Notes under the pieces: model-generated
The model's database searches: none
What the model saw: only the letters and a program-made list of their open reading frames with translations
Told to the model about the DNA's origin: nothing
Part shown: one piece after another, positions 22,566 to 30,426 of the stretch
Position numbering within the stretch: position 1 is the stretch's first letter
Layout: each line of letters starts with the position of its first letter
Assembly (NCBI GenBank): GCA_000961595.1
Contig: LADO01000002.1
Location: 1-57,125, forward strand
From: Peptococcaceae bacterium BRH_c4b
GTDB lineage: Bacteria > Bacillota > Desulfotomaculia > Desulfotomaculales > Desulfocucumaceae
Length of the DNA: 57,125 nucleotides
Reading direction: 5' to 3'
Position numbers and translations under genes: made by a program

Positions 22566-22668
22566 AAAGTCCAAAGTCTAAAGTCTAAAGTCTAAAGTTC
22601 AGAGTTCCAAAGTCCTTGGTTTCCAGCCTTCATTGACTTTCGACCTTCGACCTTTGACATTAGACTTT
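22566..22668. repeat. AAAGTCT heptamer repeats with inverted copies
   Basis: Five near-identical 7-base units (AAAGTCC, AAAGTCT three times, AAAGTTC) at 22566-22600 are followed by complementary GACTTT/GACCTTT units at 22635-22668. The two arrays could fold into a long hairpin. They fill the addB-addA junction, the second array overlapping the addB stop region. Confidence 0.7.
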
Positions 22669-25600
22669 TAAGGCAGCCATTATTTTCGCCCAGATTTCCT
22701 CAACCGGCTCATTGGCCAGCAGGCGGTATTTATTATCTTTAATTACAGGATCGAACCGGCAAACCGGTTTGAAGGGACAGTATGTACAGGCCGAGGAGTT
22801 CCCCAGCCGGTATGGCTTTATGCCCACCTCGCCGGAGTTTATTTCCAGACCTGTAGCTGTTAGCATCCGCCGCAGATATTCTATAAGCAGGGCAAACTGG
22901 TCCTCAGTCAGCACCGGGGCGCTTTTATAAAAACCGTTTTTGCCCAGGGCCACCGCGATCAGGTCGGAGTAGCCATCTATGTCCGAATCCATCATTTTTA
23001 CCACTTCCGGGTCAGCCAGAGCCAAACCTTTCATCTTCAATTCTTTCAGCAGCAGCATATCCGCCTGCTCCTGCCCCAGGGGGGCCGGTATTTTCAGCAT
23101 GGGATCAGCCACCCTGAAATAAAACATCCCCCCGGGAAGAGCAGGGCTGCCGGTGAGATCCCGGTAATTGTCCAGGGCCACCACAAGGTAGGTAAGCAAT
23201 TGAATGTCCAACCCGTTATATATCCCGGAAAGGTTCAGGTCCCTGAAACCGGATTTGTAATCCACAACTCTTAAATAGTGTCCCTTCCCGGACGATGCCG
23301 CGTCCAGCCTGTCAATTCTACCGTATAACTCCATGGCCAGCCCGCCGCCGGGAAGCTGCAGCACCAGTGGAGGCAGAGCGTCTTTGCCGGCGCCGAAGGC
23401 AAGCTCCAGCGCCACCGGGCGGAATACGCCCCGCCGGGAATGTTCCGCCAGCACGGCAGCCGCCCGGGTTAACTGGCGTTTTAATTTGTTCAGCAGATTG
23501 CGGTGGCGTGCACTGCTCAGCAGTATTTCGTTTTGCAGCCGGGGGGCGAGTATTTCCACCACCTCGCCTACCATTTTTTTAATATCGTTATTGTTGACGG
23601 AGCCCCAGTCCAGGGAGCCTTGCTTCAAACGGTCACCGTACATTTTCAGGGCCGCGTGGAAAAACTGGCCCATATCCGGAGCGCTCAGCTTTTGTACGAC
23701 CCTTTCCTTCAATTTAACTCCGTAAGCAAGGAAATGGGAAAACGGGCAGGAGCGGAACTTTTCCAGCCGGGATACGCTGGTTCTGAGCCGCTTTCCGTAC
23801 AGGGTACGGCTGGCAGCGGCGGAAAGTGGCCTTTCAGTATTGGTGTGAAACAACCCGGAGGAGATGATATTAAGTTTGTCCCTGTACTCTTCCCGGCCCG
23901 CAAACCAGTTGTAAACATCCCTCCAGAGCGGTGTTACGGGACGCCCCTCCAGCACATTCCTGAGTCTTCCCCCGAGATAGGTGAGGCAACGGCCGGGAGC
24001 TGCTATAAAACCGGCATCACTTGCCCCGGCATCGTCCGGCTCAACTCCCAGTATTTTTTCCCCGCTGCCGGGCAGCAGTTCCTTAATCCGGCCAATAACC
24101 GGCGAAGGGGTAAGCGCCCGGCCCTCCTCATCGGCCAGGGGATAACTGAGATACAGTTTTTCTGCTGCCCTGGTCAGGGCCAGGTATACAAGGTACTGTT
24201 CGTCCAGCACCTTTCGTCTGGTGGTGGGCGCAAGCTCCAGCCCAGCAGCAGCCAGCCGCTCCCTCTCGCCGTCGGTGAAAACTCCGTCCCCGGTAAGCCG
24301 GGCGGGCAGCACCCCGTCACCCACCCCCAATACCAGAGCAGCTTTTACGGAGGGACTGCGGGACCGGTCCAGGCTGCCAACCACTATATGGTCCATACCA
24401 GGCGGGATCAGCCCCAGTCTCATGCTTTCCAGGCCGGCATCCAGAACAGCGGCGTATTCAGACAGAGGTAACTGCTCCTCTCCCAGGGCGGCCACCATTT
24501 CTTCCAGCAACTTGACCAGGCCGTTCCAGATCTGCCCGTGTTCCCTGGCCTCTTCCAGACTACCATTTTTTTCGGCCAGGGTCTTCCACTCCTCCAGGCG
24601 GGCAGGAATCCCCAGTTCCTCCAACATAGTAAAAAGAGCTGCGGAAATATCCCGCACCGTAACGCCGGAGCGGGATATTTTCCAATGCAGGCTTAAAAGC
24701 TCCCGGGAGGCCAGCACCCTGGCCCGGTTAATCCTTGTCAGTTTGTCAATATACTGGCTACTGTCAGCGTCGTATTCCTCCAGGCTGTCCCGGTGGTAAT
24801 ATACCCAGTCCCTGTCCCCGGTCCAGGCCTTTCCTTTAAGCCCGAAAGCCAGCACGTAATTTTCCAGCAAATCCGCATCATCTCTGGCCAGGGGCGCCAA
24901 ATCCGTTTTAAGGTAGCGGAATAAGGGTTCGTAAGCCCAGCCCCCGCTCACCGTCTCCAGCGCTGAACGCACCAGTTCCACCAGTGGGTGGTGCATAACC
25001 GTCCTTTTCCGGTCAATAAAATAAGGTATGTCATAATCGTCAAAAACTGTGGTTAACAATAAATGATAGGTGTCCAAATCCCTCAGCAGCACGGCAATAT
25101 CCCGCCAGCGGCAGCCCCGGTCACGGCACAGGGCAATAATTTCCCTGGCGGCAGCCTCCACCTCGGCCCTGCGGGAGGTCGCCGCCACCAGTTCCACCTC
25201 ACCCCGGCCTTCATAAACAGCAGCAGGCCGTCTAAAAAACCAGCGTTCCAGGTGGGCTAGAGCGGGTGCGGCGGTAAAACGGCAGGGCACCGTGTCATCC
25301 CTGATTACGGGCTCCTCCAAAACCACCCCGGCTTTTTGAGACAGCAGCACAAGCTTATGATATGTTTCCAGAGTGGGAAAGAAAACATCGTCCTCGCCGG
25401 ATTCGGCATCTACAGCGCGACCGTCCAGGCACAGTACCACATTTACCCGGGACGCTGCTGCCAGCAAACTCTCAATTACACCATATTCCTGGGGAGTAAA
25501 ACCGGTAAAGCCATCTATCCATATTTCCGCTCCGCTCACCGTAGCTGATTGCGCCAACTTCGCGGACAACAAATTCAGATAGTCGTCCGGGTCGGTGTAG

Positions 25601-26127
25601 CGCCCCTGCATAAAGGAATCCAGGTCTTCATACAACAGGGCCAGATCATCTAGCTTGCCGGCCAGCAGGCTTTGACCGCCGGCGGCCAGGGCCGCTCTTT
25701 TTTTCCTGAGGTCGTCCGGTCCCACCCGGTAAAGTTTCATCTCCGCAATAGCGCCGGCCAGAGTATCGGCAAATCCCCTCTGCCCCGCCGCCCGCTGAAA
25801 CACTTTCAATTCACCGCGGCGGCACTCCAGCAGCCTGCGTAAAACCATTCTTTTTCCCAAGTCGCCGATGGGTGTCCTGGCCCCCCCGCCCACCTCCTGC
25901 AGCACACGCCAGGCCAGGCGCCGGAAGCTGAGCACCTGGGCGCGCATGATGCCCCCACTGCCCAGGGAAGATACCAGAGCTATTTCGTACTGAAAGCTGG
26001 CCTGTTCCGGCACCAGCATGATCAGGGGGTGGCCCATGGGGTCCGACAGGCTTTTTGCAGTTATTTCCTCCAGGCAGGCCCGGGTTTTACCCGTTCCGGC
26101 CCGGCCCAGCATAAATTTCAAGGACAA
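22660..26127 (-). CDS. addB: ATP-dependent helicase/nuclease subunit B
   Basis: A 1155-residue partner of AddA. The N-terminal Walker A is GRAGTGKT. The C-terminal nuclease has GRIDRLDA and VVDYKSG, and the four Cys that hold the 4Fe-4S cluster are visible as FRSCPFSH plus ACTYCPFKPVC. I place the start at TTG 26127 (MSLKFMLGRAGTGKT), six bases after GGAGGG; this fits homologues that begin just before Walker A. The frame is open up to 26304 but that extension looks non-coding. It is the first gene of the addBA operon. Confidence 0.94.
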   Translation of the reverse strand: MSLKFMLGRAGTGKTRACLEEITAKSLSDPMGHPLIMLVPEQASFQYEIALVSSLGSGGIMRAQVLSFRRLAWRVLQEVGGGARTPIGDLGKRMVLRRLLECRRGELKVFQRAAGQRGFADTLAGAIAEMKLYRVGPDDLRKKRAALAAGGQSLLAGKLDDLALLYEDLDSFMQGRYTDPDDYLNLLSAKLAQSATVSGAEIWIDGFTGFTPQEYGVIESLLAAASRVNVVLCLDGRAVDAESGEDDVFFPTLETYHKLVLLSQKAGVVLEEPVIRDDTVPCRFTAAPALAHLERWFFRRPAAVYEGRGEVELVAATSRRAEVEAAAREIIALCRDRGCRWRDIAVLLRDLDTYHLLLTTVFDDYDIPYFIDRKRTVMHHPLVELVRSALETVSGGWAYEPLFRYLKTDLAPLARDDADLLENYVLAFGLKGKAWTGDRDWVYYHRDSLEEYDADSSQYIDKLTRINRARVLASRELLSLHWKISRSGVTVRDISAALFTMLEELGIPARLEEWKTLAEKNGSLEEAREHGQIWNGLVKLLEEMVAALGEEQLPLSEYAAVLDAGLESMRLGLIPPGMDHIVVGSLDRSRSPSVKAALVLGVGDGVLPARLTGDGVFTDGERERLAAAGLELAPTTRRKVLDEQYLVYLALTRAAEKLYLSYPLADEEGRALTPSPVIGRIKELLPGSGEKILGVEPDDAGASDAGFIAAPGRCLTYLGGRLRNVLEGRPVTPLWRDVYNWFAGREEYRDKLNIISSGLFHTNTERPLSAAASRTLYGKRLRTSVSRLEKFRSCPFSHFLAYGVKLKERVVQKLSAPDMGQFFHAALKMYGDRLKQGSLDWGSVNNNDIKKMVGEVVEILAPRLQNEILLSSARHRNLLNKLKRQLTRAAAVLAEHSRRGVFRPVALELAFGAGKDALPPLVLQLPGGGLAMELYGRIDRLDAASSGKGHYLRVVDYKSGFRDLNLSGIYNGLDIQLLTYLVVALDNYRDLTGSPALPGGMFYFRVADPMLKIPAPLGQEQADMLLLKELKMKGLALADPEVVKMMDSDIDGYSDLIAVALGKNGFYKSAPVLTEDQFALLIEYLRRMLTATGLEINSGEVGIKPYRLGNSSACTYCPFKPVCRFDPVIKDNKYRLLANEPVEEIWAKIMAALKV

Positions 26128-26505
26128 ACCAAACCCTCCAGAGGATAATAATTCATTTATTTTTACATTTCCAATATCATAACATAAAGTTTTTGGACTG
26201 GGCTTTATTACTTTTTCCGGATAATGCCAAAGACCTGCATGAAGGCATTTCTTAGTAGCGACTACATCACCCACAAAACCACCTGGCGATATTTTTATTA
26301 ACATTTTATCCCGGCCAAATAAATTAACTCAGAGTTAGTTACAAAACAAAAGCTCTGCAGTATAATTGAAAATCAAGCAAAAAATAACTTTAAGGAAGCA
26401 TACTTTGATTTGAAAATGAATTATTACTTAAAAATATCGTCTGGTCCATACAAATGTGAATCTACTTAATATGGGGGAAAAATGAACTAAGAGTCGATAT
26501 ATGTA

Positions 26506-26534
26506 TTGCCAAAGAGATAAATAGGCTATATAAT
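26506..26534 (+). promoter_or_regulatory. Sigma-A promoter of the riboswitch operon
   Basis: -35 TTGCCA (26506-26511), 17-base spacer, -10 TATAAT (26529-26534). Transcription would begin near 26541, right at the 5' edge of the riboswitch aptamer. Confidence 0.85.
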
Positions 26535-26540
26535 GAATTA

Positions 26541-26626
26541 ATGGCAAACTTTGCCGAAAGGAAAGGGCGCAAAGCTACGGGCCTTATGGGTTGTGACTTT
26601 CAATCCAATGGCAGCCGGGTTGCCTT
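26541..26626 (+). ncRNA. Cyclic di-GMP-I (GEMM) riboswitch
   Basis: The aptamer matches the GEMM pattern: GGCAAAC at 26543-26549, a GAAA tetraloop hairpin (TTGCC-GAAA-GGAAAG), GGGCGCAAAGCTACGGGCC at 26565-26583, a variable hairpin, and GGCAGCCGGGTTGCC at 26610-26624. GGCAA and TTGCC close stem P1. A promoter ends seven bases upstream and a terminator begins 14 bases downstream, so it is a transcriptional switch for the exported-protein genes from 26846. A variant of this fold senses 3',3'-cGAMP; the G in the GGCAAAC context suggests c-di-GMP, but I cannot prove it. Confidence 0.9.
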
Positions 26627-26637
26627 GGGTGGTTATA

Positions 26638-26677
26638 AAACCAAACCTGAGTTTAAAGATCAGGTTTGGTTTTTTTA
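26638..26677 (+). terminator. Riboswitch expression-platform terminator
   Basis: AAACCAAACCTGA pairs with TCAGGTTTGGTTT, followed by a T run. Directly upstream, GGGTGGTT could pair with AACCAAACC as a competing antiterminator, which would link it to the aptamer. Confidence 0.85.
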
Positions 26678-26845
26678 CGACATAATCCGACAAAGTCATT
26701 AAAACTCCGAGTCATTCTTAAACATCAGGACAACTTTCTTAATTATAAGTTTGACGATTCTACCAAATATAAATTTTCAAATAATAAGGCCATAGAACTG
26801 TTGGTCTTCTAAAAATTAACAAATTCAATATTAAGGAGTAACATC

Positions 26846-27817
26846 ATGGTTATTGCAAGGATGACAAAGCTGTTATTGTTTGGCCTGTTGGGATTCGGGT
26901 TGGCGCTAACCACATTAACTACATATGCCTATGCTGTGGAATTGAATGGCGTTAGTATGGGTCCATCAATAGTAGACAGAACCATTAAGCCGGGAGAAAG
27001 CTTTGAACAGATATTTACTGTACAGAATAAAACCGATGGAACTGTCAAAATTGAAGCATACTTACAAGATTTCCGCATTGAAAATAATCAATGGAATAAA
27101 GTCGAGAAGCCCGACGCCCGCTGGTCACCGATGACCTGGGCCACTGTCGTCAGCGCACCGGAAAAGCTGGACCATTTAGAACAGGGAAAAATTTGTGTAA
27201 GGTTTGATGTTCCTGAAAACGCAGAAAAGGGTGAACATGTAACTTATTTTAATACTAAGTTTATTCCGGTTGCTGCAGAACAAAAAGGGACTCTATCCGC
27301 CGGCATTAGCGTTGCGTCGGAAATTCGCTCGTTAGTTTACGTTAAAGTCACAGACGCCGAGGGAAAATTTGATTTAAAACAAGCCTGGCGGCTGAATAAA
27401 GCAGGCACTGGTTTCTGGCATTATGGCAAGCCAACTTTTACAACTGTTGTAGCCAATACAGGCAATGTACACCTGGAGGTGCGGGGTAACGTAGTCATTA
27501 AAGACGGGATTAGGAATCAGAAAACAGAACTTAACATACCTGTGTTTAACATTTTGCCCGGTACAGAGAAAAAGATGGAAACCACCTGGAATGAAGCACC
27601 CTTCATTGGATATTTTCAAGGAAAAATGCAGTTGACTTACGATGGAATCAATTTTGAAGAGCGGGAGTTTTCCTTTGTAGTTGTGCCGCTGCTGACACTG
27701 GCAGGCACTGTGTTGACCATTACTGTAATTATTCTTGCCATTGTTCTGTATATTCGCAAACTGCAAAGGCGGTTAGCGGCAGCGGAACAACGGCAAAATA
27801 ATAATCCCGGAATGTAA
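26846..27817 (+). CDS. DUF916/WxL-associated-like exported membrane-anchored protein
   Basis: 323 residues: Sec signal peptide (about 1-31, cut near AYA/VELN), two Ig-like beta-sandwich regions, one C-terminal membrane helix (about 283-305) and a short basic cytoplasmic tail (YIRKLQRRLAAAEQRQ). The GESFEQIFTVQNKTDGTVKI segment and the EKGEHVTYFNTKF to ASEIRSLVYVKV region follow the pattern of DUF916 proteins, which accompany WxL surface proteins and pilus-like chaperones. Start ATG after AAGGAG. Preceded by the c-di-GMP riboswitch and followed by two more secreted proteins. Role in surface assembly is inferred. Confidence 0.75.
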   Translation: MVIARMTKLLLFGLLGFGLALTTLTTYAYAVELNGVSMGPSIVDRTIKPGESFEQIFTVQNKTDGTVKIEAYLQDFRIENNQWNKVEKPDARWSPMTWATVVSAPEKLDHLEQGKICVRFDVPENAEKGEHVTYFNTKFIPVAAEQKGTLSAGISVASEIRSLVYVKVTDAEGKFDLKQAWRLNKAGTGFWHYGKPTFTTVVANTGNVHLEVRGNVVIKDGIRNQKTELNIPVFNILPGTEKKMETTWNEAPFIGYFQGKMQLTYDGINFEEREFSFVVVPLLTLAGTVLTITVIILAIVLYIRKLQRRLAAAEQRQNNNPGM

Positions 27818-27895
27818 GGCAAATTTCGGACTCTATTTACGAAAATCGTTAAACAATGTTCCGGGTAAAATTAGCAAAAAAGGAGGTGAATTCAA

Positions 27896-28366
27896 GTGAA
27901 AAAAAGTATGGCAATTCTATTTGTAGTGGGGTTGTTGCTGGCTAGCGTAGGGATAGTACAGGCCAATACCTTGAGCATTAATGCTAATGTTTCATCTGCA
28001 ATAAGCCTGGCACTCGACCCGGCGACCTTAACTTTTAACGGCGTACAACAGGGTACTCCCTCAGCTTCTCAGCCGTTGACGGCCACCACCACTGGCTCCG
28101 GGAATTATCAACTTCAGTTGTCGAGCACAACCTTCACCGCAGCCGGAGGAATAACCCAACCAACCACTGTATTGCAGTATAAGGAAACTGCAGCCGTCCC
28201 ATATGTGAATGCGACAGCTACTGCTACAAATATGCTGGCTGCTCCTGGCACCGCTGTTGTTGCCCCTGGGGATGCAAAGACATTTGATTTTCGCGTTAAT
28301 TTCCCAGCCAACGCTGTTAACGGCGCTTACGCTGCAACCGTCACAATCACTGCTGCCCCGCTTTAA
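27896..28366 (+). CDS. Secreted beta-sandwich protein, WxL/pilin-like
   Basis: 156 residues, start GTG 27896 after AAGGAGGTGA. A classic signal peptide (1-23, ending VQA/NTLS) precedes a Ser/Thr/Ala/Asn-rich mature part without Cys, with alternating hydrophobic strands (SAISLALDPATLTFNGV, GNYQLQLSSTTF, FDFRVNFPANAVNGAYAATV) typical of Ig-like surface or fimbrial subunits. The C-terminal AYAATVTITA strand resembles spore coat U or WxL repeats. It lies 79 bases after the DUF916-like gene and should be in the same riboswitch-controlled transcript; likely the abundant surface subunit. Confidence 0.7.
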   Translation: MKKSMAILFVVGLLLASVGIVQANTLSINANVSSAISLALDPATLTFNGVQQGTPSASQPLTATTTGSGNYQLQLSSTTFTAAGGITQPTTVLQYKETAAVPYVNATATATNMLAAPGTAVVAPGDAKTFDFRVNFPANAVNGAYAATVTITAAPL

Positions 28367-28368
28367 AA

Positions 28369-28438
28369 AGCATTGTCAAAACCAAATAATCCGATCTCAG
28401 GGTGCCACCTAAAACGGAATGTGGTTAGGACAATGCTT
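28369..28438 (+). other. Structured inverted repeat after the surface-subunit gene
   Basis: AAGCATTGTC (28369-28378) pairs exactly with GACAATGCTT (28429-28438), and inside ACCA faces TGGT. It has no T-tract, so it may protect the 3' end of the upstream message or be a processing site. Confidence 0.5.
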
Positions 28439-28486
28439 AAGGCTATTTTAACACAATACACATGACAGAACAAATATGACAACAGT

Positions 28487-28523
28487 AACAGCGCCTAGGA
28501 CATAAGTACTAGGCGCTGTGTTG
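28487..28523 (+). terminator. Rho-independent terminator
   Basis: AACAGCGCCTAG pairs with CTAGGCGCTGTGTT around a 10-base loop, followed by TTGTTATT. It separates the first two exported proteins from the third, so the third may be expressed by read-through or from its own promoter. Confidence 0.75.
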
Positions 28524-28561
28524 TTATTGATCATCCGGCAATGTTTTTAACGGAAATATCT

Positions 28562-29086
28562 ATGAACAGACGGACGGTAATAATGTTTTGTTTTTTATTG
28601 GGACTGTTTTGCCTGGCGGTATATCCCGCAGGAGGGGACATTTCCGAAAACGACAATAATAATAAGGAATATATTGAATTAAGTACAGAAGATAAAGCGT
28701 TGGGATTTCCTAAAGCCACCATAGGTCAAATAAGCGAAGAACAGAGAATTACTACCATTGTGCAGGGAAATGACCGTTACCAACTATACATCCAGGCAAC
28801 TTCTCTTGTAACAGATGATTCTAAAGAGCTACCGCCGTCAGTAATAGAATTCAAAGAAGAGTCGGAACAGTTTTGGCTGCATGCGTCTGATGCTCTGATA
28901 CCAGTATTGTCAACACCGGCAAAAGCTAAAAACAAAGGAGACCAAAAAAGAATTGCTATTCGCTTAAATATTCCAGAATCAGCTGTCCCCGGTTTGTATA
29001 CAGGTGAAATGACTGTCATTGCAAGTGTATGCCAATTTCCCCAGGAAATTGAAAGCCCGGAATCTGCTGAATCTATCCCTGAATAA
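28562..29086 (+). CDS. Secreted protein, third member of the riboswitch cluster
   Basis: 174 residues from ATG 28562 (MNRRTVIMFCFLLGLFCLAV), chosen because it gives a standard signal peptide; an upstream ATG at 28541 would put seven extra residues before it. Neither has a strong ribosome binding site. The mature part is acidic, beta-rich and shares the plan of the second protein: an early strand block, a QLYIQATSLV strand, then RIAIRLNIPESAVPGLYTGEMTVI, similar to FRVNFPANAVNGAYAATV. It is thus a distant paralogue. No Cys in the mature part. Confidence 0.65.
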   Translation: MNRRTVIMFCFLLGLFCLAVYPAGGDISENDNNNKEYIELSTEDKALGFPKATIGQISEEQRITTIVQGNDRYQLYIQATSLVTDDSKELPPSVIEFKEESEQFWLHASDALIPVLSTPAKAKNKGDQKRIAIRLNIPESAVPGLYTGEMTVIASVCQFPQEIESPESAESIPE

Positions 29087-29087
29087 T

Positions 29088-29128
29088 AAAACCCCGTCCG
29101 GAGATAAACCTGTGCCGGCGGGGGTTTT
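29088..29128 (+). terminator. Terminator of the exported-protein cluster
   Basis: AAAACCCCGTCCGG pairs with CCGGCGGGGGTTTT, 13-base loop, immediately after the stop codon at 29086. Confidence 0.8.
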
Positions 29129-29454: not shown

Positions 29455-30426
29455 TTAATCGGTAAACACCAGATTGGGTTTGCGGGTCAGGCGGTGAACA
29501 GCTTTAATGTACCTGATGGTGCCTGTTTTGTACCTCATCACCAGGGAATGAGTTTCCCCCATGTCGCCTCCGGTAAAACGAACCCCTCTCAGCAATTCGC
29601 CGTCTGTTACCCCGGTGGCAGCAAAGATGGCGTCGTCACCCTTAACCATGTCATCCATGTATAAAATGCGTGTTATATCAGTTATGCCCATCTCTTTGCA
29701 GCGTGCCCTGTCCTCGTCATCCTCCGGCCACAGCCTGGCCTGCATCTCGCCGCCCAAACATTTGAGAGCAGCCGCAGCGATAACGCCCTCCGGCGCCCCG
29801 CCGATCCCAACGCACAAGTCAATACCTGTCCCGGGTATGGCTGTATAAATGGCGGAGCCCACATCACCGTCACCGATGAGCCTCACCCTGGCACCGGTCT
29901 TGCGCACGGCCTCTATTAATTCCTGATGCCTGTCCCTTTCCAGAATCATTACGGTGCAGTCGTTAATCCGCTTATTATTGGCCCTGGCCACTATCTCCAG
30001 TGTTTTTTCGATGGGGTCGTCGAGTCTTATTTTACCTGCGGCCCGGGGCCCAACAGCGATTTTTTCCATATACATGTCCGGCGCGTGGAGCAGGTTCCCC
30101 CGGTCGGCTATGGCGATAACAGACATAGCGTTGGGCAGCCCCTTGGCCAGAATATTGGTGCCTTCCAGCGGGTCCACCGCCACATCCACCTCCGGTGAAG
30201 CCGCGCAGCCCACCTTTTCACCGATATACAGCATGGGGGCTTCGTCCATTTCCCCCTCCCCTATTACCACCGTACCGTTGATGCTGATGGTATCAAACAT
30301 GGCCCGCATGGCGTTGGTTGCCGCATCGTCCGCCTCGTGCTTACGGCCTCTCCCCATCCACTGGGCGCAGGCCAGCGCCGCTACCTCGGTAACCCTTACC
30401 AGTTCCAGTGTAAGTTCACGATCCAC
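29455..30426 (-). CDS. glpX: Fructose-1,6-bisphosphatase class II
   Basis: 323 residues of the GlpX family, which hydrolyses fructose 1,6-bisphosphate in gluconeogenesis. Visible signatures are [18 protein letters not shown] near 50-67, the metal-binding [11 protein letters not shown] near 80-90, and [17 protein letters not shown] near 185. Full length with no fused domain. It lies on the minus strand with the small membrane gene downstream; the upstream BON gene is separated by a terminator, so glpX probably has its own promoter. Confidence 0.95.

What the first reader, a model, noticed from the sequence alone, without database searches (positions are those of the whole stretch)
26506..29128. 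c-di-GMP riboswitch controlling a three-gene exported surface-protein cluster
A textbook promoter, a GEMM aptamer with closed P1, a GAAA tetraloop and CGCAAAGC core, and a strong terminator precede a DUF916-like anchored protein and two signal-peptide beta-sandwich proteins that are distant paralogues. The layout suggests a surface fibre, biofilm or attachment system switched by c-di-GMP in a spore-forming anaerobe. I know of no described system with exactly these three proteins.
Basis: partly seen in the sequence, partly recalled or inferred. Interest (0 to 1): 0.75.

Follow-up and report, generated by a model that had tools for sequence, protein, structure and literature searches.

The report
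c-di-GMP-switched chaperone–pilin-like surface operon
An RNA switch that senses the bacterial signal c-di-GMP sits in front of three genes for exported proteins: a membrane-anchored assembly-chaperone look-alike and two pilin-like subunits. Related clusters recur behind three kinds of c-di-GMP switch across the Bacillota, which points to an uncharacterised surface-attachment structure controlled by c-di-GMP.

Summary
A c-di-GMP-I aptamer lies at 26533-26627 (67.5 bits, cut-off 35), with a consensus promoter in front, a terminator behind, and three exported proteins downstream. One detail is wrong: P1 is not closed, because the predicted transcript starts at about 26540, right at the aptamer. 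Base G20 (26543) fits c-di-GMP rather than cGAMP. An alternative antiterminator stem is paired in all four orthologous leaders; folding favours an ON switch in three of four (moderate confidence).

Gene 1 is a distant relative of WxL-interacting proteins: its model matches E. faecium WxLIP best (Z 15.5), then fimbrial chaperones (Z about 13). Gene 2 is a FimA-like sandwich (Z 10.5); gene 3 is its paralogue. No WxL motif, usher or TasA match was found.

The operon is conserved behind the aptamer in three other genomes. More distant relatives sit beside c-di-GMP-I, c-di-GMP-I-GGC and c-di-GMP-II aptamers. In outer-membrane relatives gene 1 lacks its membrane anchor.

Best reading: a c-di-GMP-controlled, chaperone-assisted surface fibre or complex, membrane-anchored and without an usher. 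An undescribed conserved RNA lies between genes 2 and 3. Fibre assembly, ligand binding and switch direction are untested.

The parts
26506..26534 (+). sigma-70-type promoter, TTGCCA (26506-26511), 17 nt, TATAAT (26529-26534); predicted start about 26540-26542
   Evidence: consensus scan, 11 of 12; a -10 box at the same place in the G100 and G101 leaders (read)
26533..26627 (+). c-di-GMP-I (GEMM-I) riboswitch aptamer; ligand-contact bases G20 = 26543, A47 = 26570, C92 = 26623 (numbering of Vibrio Vc2, from own knowledge)
   Evidence: Rfam RF01051, 67.5 bits against cut-off 35
26624..26651 (+). proposed antiterminator: 26624-26630 with 26645-26651 (7 bp), extendable in this leader by GGUU/AACC
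   Evidence: 28 of 28 cells paired in 4 orthologues, slid controls 0-57%; duplex better than 97.8-99.8% of shuffles in the four leaders
26637..26676 (+). intrinsic terminator, 14-bp stem then a T run
   Evidence: z -6.1; three pairs with compensatory changes in 4 leaders
26846..27817 (+). gene 1 (P0001, 323 aa): signal peptide, two Ig-like sandwiches (about 31-170 and 178-279), C-terminal TM helix (within 282-319), basic tail; WxLIP/PapD-like
   Evidence: AlphaFold2 pLDDT 75.8; Foldseek and VIA top match WxLIP 9i25/9i1y; family profile finds EfmWxLIP1 first among PDB sequences, E 0.045
27896..28366 (+). gene 2 (P0002, 156 aa; GTG start): signal peptide and one FimA-like sandwich that ends on its last strand
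   Evidence: AlphaFold2 pLDDT 82.1; top matches are FimA, VIA Z 10.5
28366..28455 (+). conserved structured RNA element directly behind gene 2, undescribed
   Evidence: model R1 finds it only at this locus in 4 of 113 genomes, E 7e-16 here; no Rfam match; fold z -4.5
28488..28519 (+). GC-rich 11-bp hairpin between genes 2 and 3 (attenuator or mRNA stabiliser)
   Evidence: z -6.0; eight pairs of this hairpin show changes on both sides across 4 orthologues
28541..29086 (+). gene 3 (P0003, 181 aa; actual start probably ATG at 28562): signal peptide and diverged paralogue of gene 2 with a polar C-terminal tail
   Evidence: E 1.4e-10 to gene 2; orthologues at 51-52% identity in G100 and G101
29088..29128 (+). 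terminator-like hairpin that ends the operon
   Evidence: -21.3 kcal/mol, z -2.75; consensus scan

Best explanation
A c-di-GMP-I riboswitch controls, by premature transcription termination, an operon for a chaperone-assisted surface fibre or complex. Steps: (1) Shown by sequence: aptamer, terminator, and an alternative antiterminator stem (26624-26630 with 26645-26651) that excludes the terminator. (2) Inferred: with c-di-GMP bound, C92 and the P3 strand are held in the aptamer, so 26624-26634 is free to pair with the terminator's 5' arm and transcription goes on (ON switch, about 0.6). Without ligand, the 3' half of the aptamer and this strand fold into a local hairpin, and the terminator forms. 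(3) Inferred from fold: gene 1 stays in the membrane through its C-terminal helix and, like WxLIP and fimbrial chaperones, offers an edge strand or hairpin to complete the sandwich of gene 2/3 products outside the membrane. (4) Inferred: gene 2, with its alternating hydrophobic N-terminal strand and a C-terminus that ends on its last strand, is the main subunit and may polymerise by donor-strand exchange; gene 3 is a minor (tip, base or anchor) subunit. The hairpin and conserved RNA behind gene 2 probably set the gene 2 : gene 3 ratio. The outcome would be attachment or aggregation when c-di-GMP is high.
For: Aptamer far over cut-off, and orthologous aptamers before the same genes in G007 (72.3 bits), G100 (62.7) and G101 (60.9). 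Antiterminator paired in all four leaders while the terminator's own stem covaries. In ensembles, aptamer-bound RNA favours the antiterminator in the window (1.0 vs about 0.25) and G100 (1.0 vs 0.73), and delays the terminator in 3 of 4 leaders. Gene 1 model: WxLIP Z 15.5, FimC and other chaperones Z about 13; sequence profile ranks EfmWxLIP1 first in the PDB. Gene 2 model: FimA monomers Z 10.5 with the N-terminal strand included, FimA in pili about 8 without it. Independent association: in six f38 genomes each cluster has one c-di-GMP-II and one c-di-GMP-I-GGC aptamer, and each of these 12 directly precedes a small exported sandwich-like gene; c-di-GMP-I does so in G404 and G318. In 0.196 Mb of fetched loci about 0.43 c-di-GMP-I aptamers were expected from the density in five Desulfotomaculia genomes. 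Class II aptamers are ON switches in C. difficile and a class I aptamer switches a Bacillus adhesin ON (PMC6366702).
Against: No ligand-binding or expression data. The nearest-neighbour model shows no ligand effect on the antiterminator in G007 and G101, and at full length the terminator wins in both states. Functional class I aptamers in C. difficile are all OFF switches. No usher (PF00577) in any of nine genomes. Gene 1 has no PF06030 or PF00345 match of its own. The models rest on 4-6 sequences (pTM 0.53 and 0.75), and beta sandwiches are a common fold. Gene 3 was not modelled. The aptamer is absent before the same genes in G272 and G066, so the control is not universal.
Confidence: 0.55

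Rival explanations
1. It is a diverged WxL-type surface complex that does not polymerise: gene 1 is a WxL-interacting protein that pins the small sandwich proteins to the cell wall as a platform or carbohydrate binder.
For: WxLIP is the best structural and best sequence-profile match of gene 1, with the same order signal peptide, two Ig-like domains, TM helix. WxL clusters have a small protein plus this partner (PMC10599100). Gene 2-like proteins of several relatives carry W-x-L where gene 2 has Y-Q-L (alignment).
Against: Genes 2 and 3 have no W-x-L motif (gene 2 has no Trp); no member of the family matches the WxL domain in Pfam even at E 5; there is no large WxL protein; the gene 2 fold matches pilins best.
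Confidence: 0.25
2. OFF switch: c-di-GMP binding promotes the terminator and shuts the operon, so the proteins serve a motile or planktonic phase.
For: Class I aptamers in C. difficile are OFF switches; at full length the terminator is the stable fold in both states.
Against: An OFF switch of the Cd1 type needs the strand after the aptamer to be sequestered by ligand binding through P1; here the transcript starts at the aptamer, and no 5' strand can do that. Three of four leaders fold in the ON sense.
Confidence: 0.3
3. The aptamer senses 3',3'-cGAMP (GEMM-Ib).
For: Two orthologous leaders (G100 and G101, Pelotomaculum) and one other aptamer of this genome (L004) have A at position 20, the GEMM-Ib base. 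An A20G change turned a cGAMP aptamer into a c-di-GMP aptamer (PMC6456294).
Against: The window's aptamer has G20. None of the GGDEF domains read in four genomes has the Ser of Hypr enzymes.
Confidence: 0.04
4. The three proteins are unrelated Ig-like surface or carbohydrate-binding proteins without an assembly partnership.
For: The Ig-like sandwich is common; glycoside hydrolase N-domains also match gene 2 (Z about 8.5-9).
Against: Gene 1- and gene 2-like proteins stay adjacent in very diverged genomes, in both gene orders.
Confidence: 0.12

Closest known systems
WxL protein cluster (WxLIP = DUF916-DUF3324-TM protein, with small and large WxL proteins; Enterococcus, Lactobacillales)
   Same: Gene 1 architecture and fold; membrane anchor; small exported partner in the same cluster
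   Different: No WxL domain or W-x-L motif in genes 2 and 3; gene 1 below family cut-offs; a c-di-GMP riboswitch in front; Desulfotomaculia instead of Lactobacillales
Chaperone-usher pili (FimC/FimA, Caf1M/Caf1, Csu)
   Same: Two-domain PapD-like chaperone fold and FimA-like subunit fold encoded together; possible N-terminal donor strand
   Different: No usher; chaperone is fused to a TM helix; host has no Omp85, so it looks single-membraned
TasA/TapA fibres of Bacillus (donor-strand fibres of a Gram-positive)
   Same: A surface fibre by strand complementation with a helper protein, without an usher, would be the same principle (PMC10151520, PMC9674648)
   Different: No match of genes 2 or 3 to the TasA/camelysin family PF12389; the helper is a two-domain WxLIP-like membrane protein
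c-di-GMP-I riboswitch with terminator platform (Cd1 flgB of C. difficile, OFF; Bc2 cap of B. thuringiensis, ON)
   Same: Aptamer class and transcriptional control of surface genes
   Different: Transcript starts at the aptamer, so no P1; the antiterminator starts at the base after C92

Membership tests
c-di-GMP-I riboswitch (RF01051) | covariance-model score over the curated cut-off | tested here: met
   67.5 bits against 35
c-di-GMP-I riboswitch (RF01051) | ligand-contact bases G20, A47, C92 | tested here: met
   G26543, A26570, C26623 by alignment
c-di-GMP-I riboswitch (RF01051) | GAAA tetraloop and its receptor | tested here: inconclusive
   GAAA present; the receptor reads CUUA instead of CUAA
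c-di-GMP-I riboswitch (RF01051) | expression platform with exclusive terminator and antiterminator | tested here: met
c-di-GMP-I riboswitch (RF01051) | binding of c-di-GMP | not testable with these tools
   needs in-line probing or ITC
GEMM-Ib (cGAMP) riboswitch | A at position 20 | tested here: not met
   G26543 in the window; A in the G100 and G101 leaders and in L004
GEMM-Ib (cGAMP) riboswitch | Hypr GGDEF (Ser for Asp) in the genome | tested here: not met
   none among the GGDEF domains with a readable motif in G000, G007, G100, G101; a few divergent domains could not be read
WxLIP (WxL-interacting protein) | two Ig-like domains then a TM helix | tested here: met
WxLIP (WxL-interacting protein) | Pfam PF06030 (DUF916) over cut-off | tested here: not met
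   gene 1 itself has no match; two of ten relatives match weakly, best E 7.5e-5
WxLIP (WxL-interacting protein) | neighbouring WxL-domain proteins | tested here: not met
   no W-x-L in P0002 or P0003 (read); no WxL-domain match
chaperone-usher pathway | PapD-like two-domain chaperone fold | tested here: met
   FimC Z 13.4, 183 residues, 3.4 A
chaperone-usher pathway | pilin-like subunit fold | tested here: met
   FimA Z 10.5, 133 residues, 3.3 A
chaperone-usher pathway | outer-membrane usher | tested here: not met
   PF00577 absent in nine genomes, found in the E. coli control
chaperone-usher pathway | donor-strand complementation | not testable with these tools
   only suggested by the model's N-terminal strand
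TasA/camelysin | Pfam PF12389 match of the subunit | tested here: not met
   no match for P0002 or P0003

The most novel reading that the evidence does not exclude
A Bacillota-wide, c-di-GMP-riboswitch-controlled assembly pathway that links WxLIP and fimbrial chaperones. In single-membrane hosts the chaperone is tethered to the cytoplasmic membrane and builds donor-strand fibres without an usher. In outer-membrane relatives the same protein is soluble and is encoded beside an 880-1110-residue exported protein that may be an unrecognised usher-like barrel.
Probability: 0.33. Interest if true: 0.82.

Novelty: new variant of a known kind. Interest (0 to 1): 0.6.

Why it matters
If right, it adds an uncharacterised, c-di-GMP-controlled surface structure to spore-forming anaerobes (including syntrophic Pelotomaculum, which lives with methanogens). 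It also offers a test of how fimbrial chaperones and Gram-positive WxL-interacting proteins are related, since one family appears with a membrane anchor in single-membrane hosts and without one in outer-membrane hosts. The recurrence of three aptamer classes at one gene family makes c-di-GMP control of it directly testable.

Tried and rejected
Single-sequence scan of genome contigs with gene 1 found nothing; the alignment scan found four loci. Plasmid collection: no match to gene 1. Closed or extended P1: folds of leaders that include promoter DNA show a long P1-like stem in G101, but this uses bases upstream of the predicted start and was rejected. cGAMP control through Hypr GGDEF: no Ser-type GGDEF found. 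Usher by Pfam or PDB profile: none; the PDB profile of the large proteins hits mainly SdrD-B-like and similar repeat domains. Sequence profile of gene 2 against the PDB: no meaningful hit. Identity of the RNA element at 28366-28455: no Rfam family, weak chance hits only. That element outside the four orthologous loci: none in 113 genomes or in nine related loci.
Full report
WHAT WAS CHECKED. The window is contig 16 of a 3.62-Mb, 66-contig genome with the unnamed handle G000. The operon is isolated: a divergent addB-like gene (22660-26304, -) on one side and a convergent glpX-like gene (29455-30426, -) on the other (names by eye).

THE RIBOSWITCH. RF01051 scores 67.5 bits at 26533-26627, cut-off 35; nothing else in Rfam reaches threshold in the window. 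The genome has six such aptamers. The promoter TTGCCA-17-TATAAT matches 11 of 12 positions and places the start at about 26540-26542, just before G20 (26543). NMR found no P1 helix in the working Cd1 aptamer (PMC9262584), so this is not disqualifying. The bases that contact the ligand are as in c-di-GMP aptamers: G20, A47 (26570), C92 (26623). In GEMM-Ib, position 20 is A, and changing A20 to G changed selectivity from cGAMP to c-di-GMP (PMC6456294).

THE EXPRESSION PLATFORM. The terminator (26637-26673, then T run) folds at -19 kcal/mol, z -6.1. Its 5' arm can instead pair with 26624-26630, the bases that follow C92 directly. This seven-pair antiterminator is paired in 28 of 28 cells over four orthologous leaders, against 0-57% when slid; its variation is one-sided, so the evidence is conservation of complementarity, not covariation. 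The terminator itself shows compensatory changes at three pairs. With the aptamer imposed, the antiterminator probability just before the terminator's 3' arm emerges rises from about 0.25 to 1.0 in the window and from 0.73 to 1.0 in G100, and is already about 1 in G007 and G101. As the 3' arm emerges the terminator is delayed in three of four leaders. This points to ON, with moderate confidence: the energy model ignores the ligand and tertiary contacts, and at full length the terminator wins in either state. Precedents go both ways: C. difficile class I aptamers are OFF, the B. thuringiensis Bc2 class I aptamer is ON for an adhesin, and class II aptamers are ON (PMC6366702).

THE PROTEINS. Gene 1 passes no Pfam or NCBIfam cut-off. 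Its AlphaFold2 model (pLDDT 75.8, pTM 0.53, four sequences) has a signal helix, two sandwiches and a C-terminal helix. Foldseek's best PDB matches are E. faecium WxLIP (9i25, 9i1y; E 5e-11 and 1.5e-10), then chaperones of fimbriae. VIA-align gives WxLIP Z 15.5 (230 residues, 5.5 A) and FimC Z 13.4 (183 residues, 3.4 A). Independently by sequence, a profile of ten family members ranks EfmWxLIP1 first of 177,635 PDB sequences, though only at E 0.045. Gene 2 (pLDDT 82.1, pTM 0.75) matches FimA monomers best, Z 10.5 over residues 17-156; alignments to FimA inside pili start at residue 32-35 with Z about 8. The mature N-terminus (NTLSINANV) alternates hydrophobic residues and the chain ends on its last strand. 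Gene 3 is a paralogue and was not modelled.

CONSERVATION. Among 113 genomes of the class, gene 1 relatives occur in nine, counting this one. G100 and G101 have all three genes behind the aptamer; G007 has genes 1 and 2 behind the aptamer and another exported protein in third place; G066 has genes 1 and 2 without an aptamer. G272, from another family, has the full trio without an aptamer.

RECURRENCE WITH OTHER C-DI-GMP SWITCHES. A phylum-wide profile search (398 genomes) gave 22 genomes with gene 1 relatives. In six genomes of one family (f38) the cluster reads c-di-GMP-II, gene 2-like, gene 1-like, one or more gene 2-like, c-di-GMP-I-GGC, gene 2-like. c-di-GMP-I precedes gene 2-like genes in G404 and G318, and a c-di-GMP-I-GGC aptamer lies in the G368 cluster. 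Checking the gene after each aptamer, 14 of 15 precede a small exported sandwich-like gene; in G368 the ORF chosen by the script was not informative. The background density of c-di-GMP-I aptamers in five Desulfotomaculia genomes (39 in about 17.9 Mb) predicts 0.43 in the 0.196 Mb scanned. The six f38 genomes are related and count as one lineage, and the background was not measured in those families. Even so, association in several lineages with three aptamer classes is strong evidence that c-di-GMP controls this gene family.

ONE OR TWO MEMBRANES. Gene 1 relatives in G272, G066, G382 and G136 end in a TM helix; those in f38, G404 and G412 do not. Omp85 is present in G492, G213 (both f38), G404 and G412 and absent in G000, G007, G100, G101 and G272. 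So in this sample the anchor goes with the lack of an outer membrane. The outer-membrane relatives also encode an 885-1113-residue exported protein nearby. It has Ig-like N-domains and SdrD-B-like repeats and no PF00577 usher match. That it is an usher is a guess.

A CONSERVED RNA INSIDE THE OPERON. Directly behind gene 2 lies an 86-90-nt element (28366-28455) with an outer stem and a conserved core (AGGNUGYCA..CC...CGGA). It occurs at the same place in G100, G101 and G007. A covariance model finds it nowhere else in 113 genomes. Rfam has no match. Behind it a GC-rich hairpin (28488-28519) is kept with changes on both sides at eight of its pairs. Setting the gene 2: gene 3 ratio is the simplest guess, but the conserved core suggests more than a hairpin.

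THE A20 PUZZLE. The orthologous leaders of G100 and G101, and one other aptamer of this genome (L004), have A at position 20, as cGAMP aptamers do. No Ser-type (Hypr) GGDEF was found in G000, G007, G100 or G101 among domains with a readable motif. Either these A20 aptamers still use c-di-GMP, or cGAMP is made otherwise.

VERDICT. The riboswitch is real and ordinary in kind. The protein system it controls is a new variant near WxLIP complexes and chaperone-built fibres, recurrent with c-di-GMP switches. Shown: sequence features, folds by prediction, conservation, association. Inferred: ligand, direction, partnership, fibre.

Noticed in passing
window 28366-28455; L020:8729-8817; L019:6353-6441 (-); L011:7836-7925: Undescribed conserved structured RNA directly behind gene 2, only at this locus in four genomes, no Rfam match.
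   Followed up: partly
window 28488-28519: Covarying GC-rich hairpin between genes 2 and 3, possible attenuator or mRNA stabiliser.
   Followed up: partly
L085, L086 (G100, G101 leaders), L004:1501-1589 (-): A at aptamer position 20 (cGAMP-type base) although no Hypr-type GGDEF was found; the same operon appears with G20 or A20 in different genera.
   Followed up: partly
L165, L166, L169-L172 (family f38): Clusters of gene 1- and gene 2-like genes flanked by one c-di-GMP-II and one c-di-GMP-I-GGC aptamer each, in a family where the two genomes sampled have Omp85.
   Followed up: partly
L165:8055-10712 (-), L167:2184-5525, L168:1985-4930 (-), L180:3402-5561 (-): Large exported proteins (719-1113 aa) beside the outer-membrane versions; candidate outer-membrane barrel or usher-like proteins with no family match in the middle part.
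   Followed up: partly
L001, L002, L004, L005, L006 downstream regions: By eye, the other five c-di-GMP-I aptamers of this genome precede an RHS/YD-repeat exported protein (L001), a sigma-factor-like protein (L002), a response-regulator-like protein (L004, A20 aptamer), a sensor-kinase-like protein (L005) and an HD-GYP-like protein (L006).
   Followed up: no
L019, gene 1 start (aptamer end 8065 to 7901, -): In P. terephthalicicum the gene 1 signal peptide is split by an apparent frameshift in a run of T; sequencing error or real is unknown.
   Followed up: no
L011:8175-9677: In MAG G007 a 500-residue exported protein of unknown family takes the place of gene 3.
   Followed up: no
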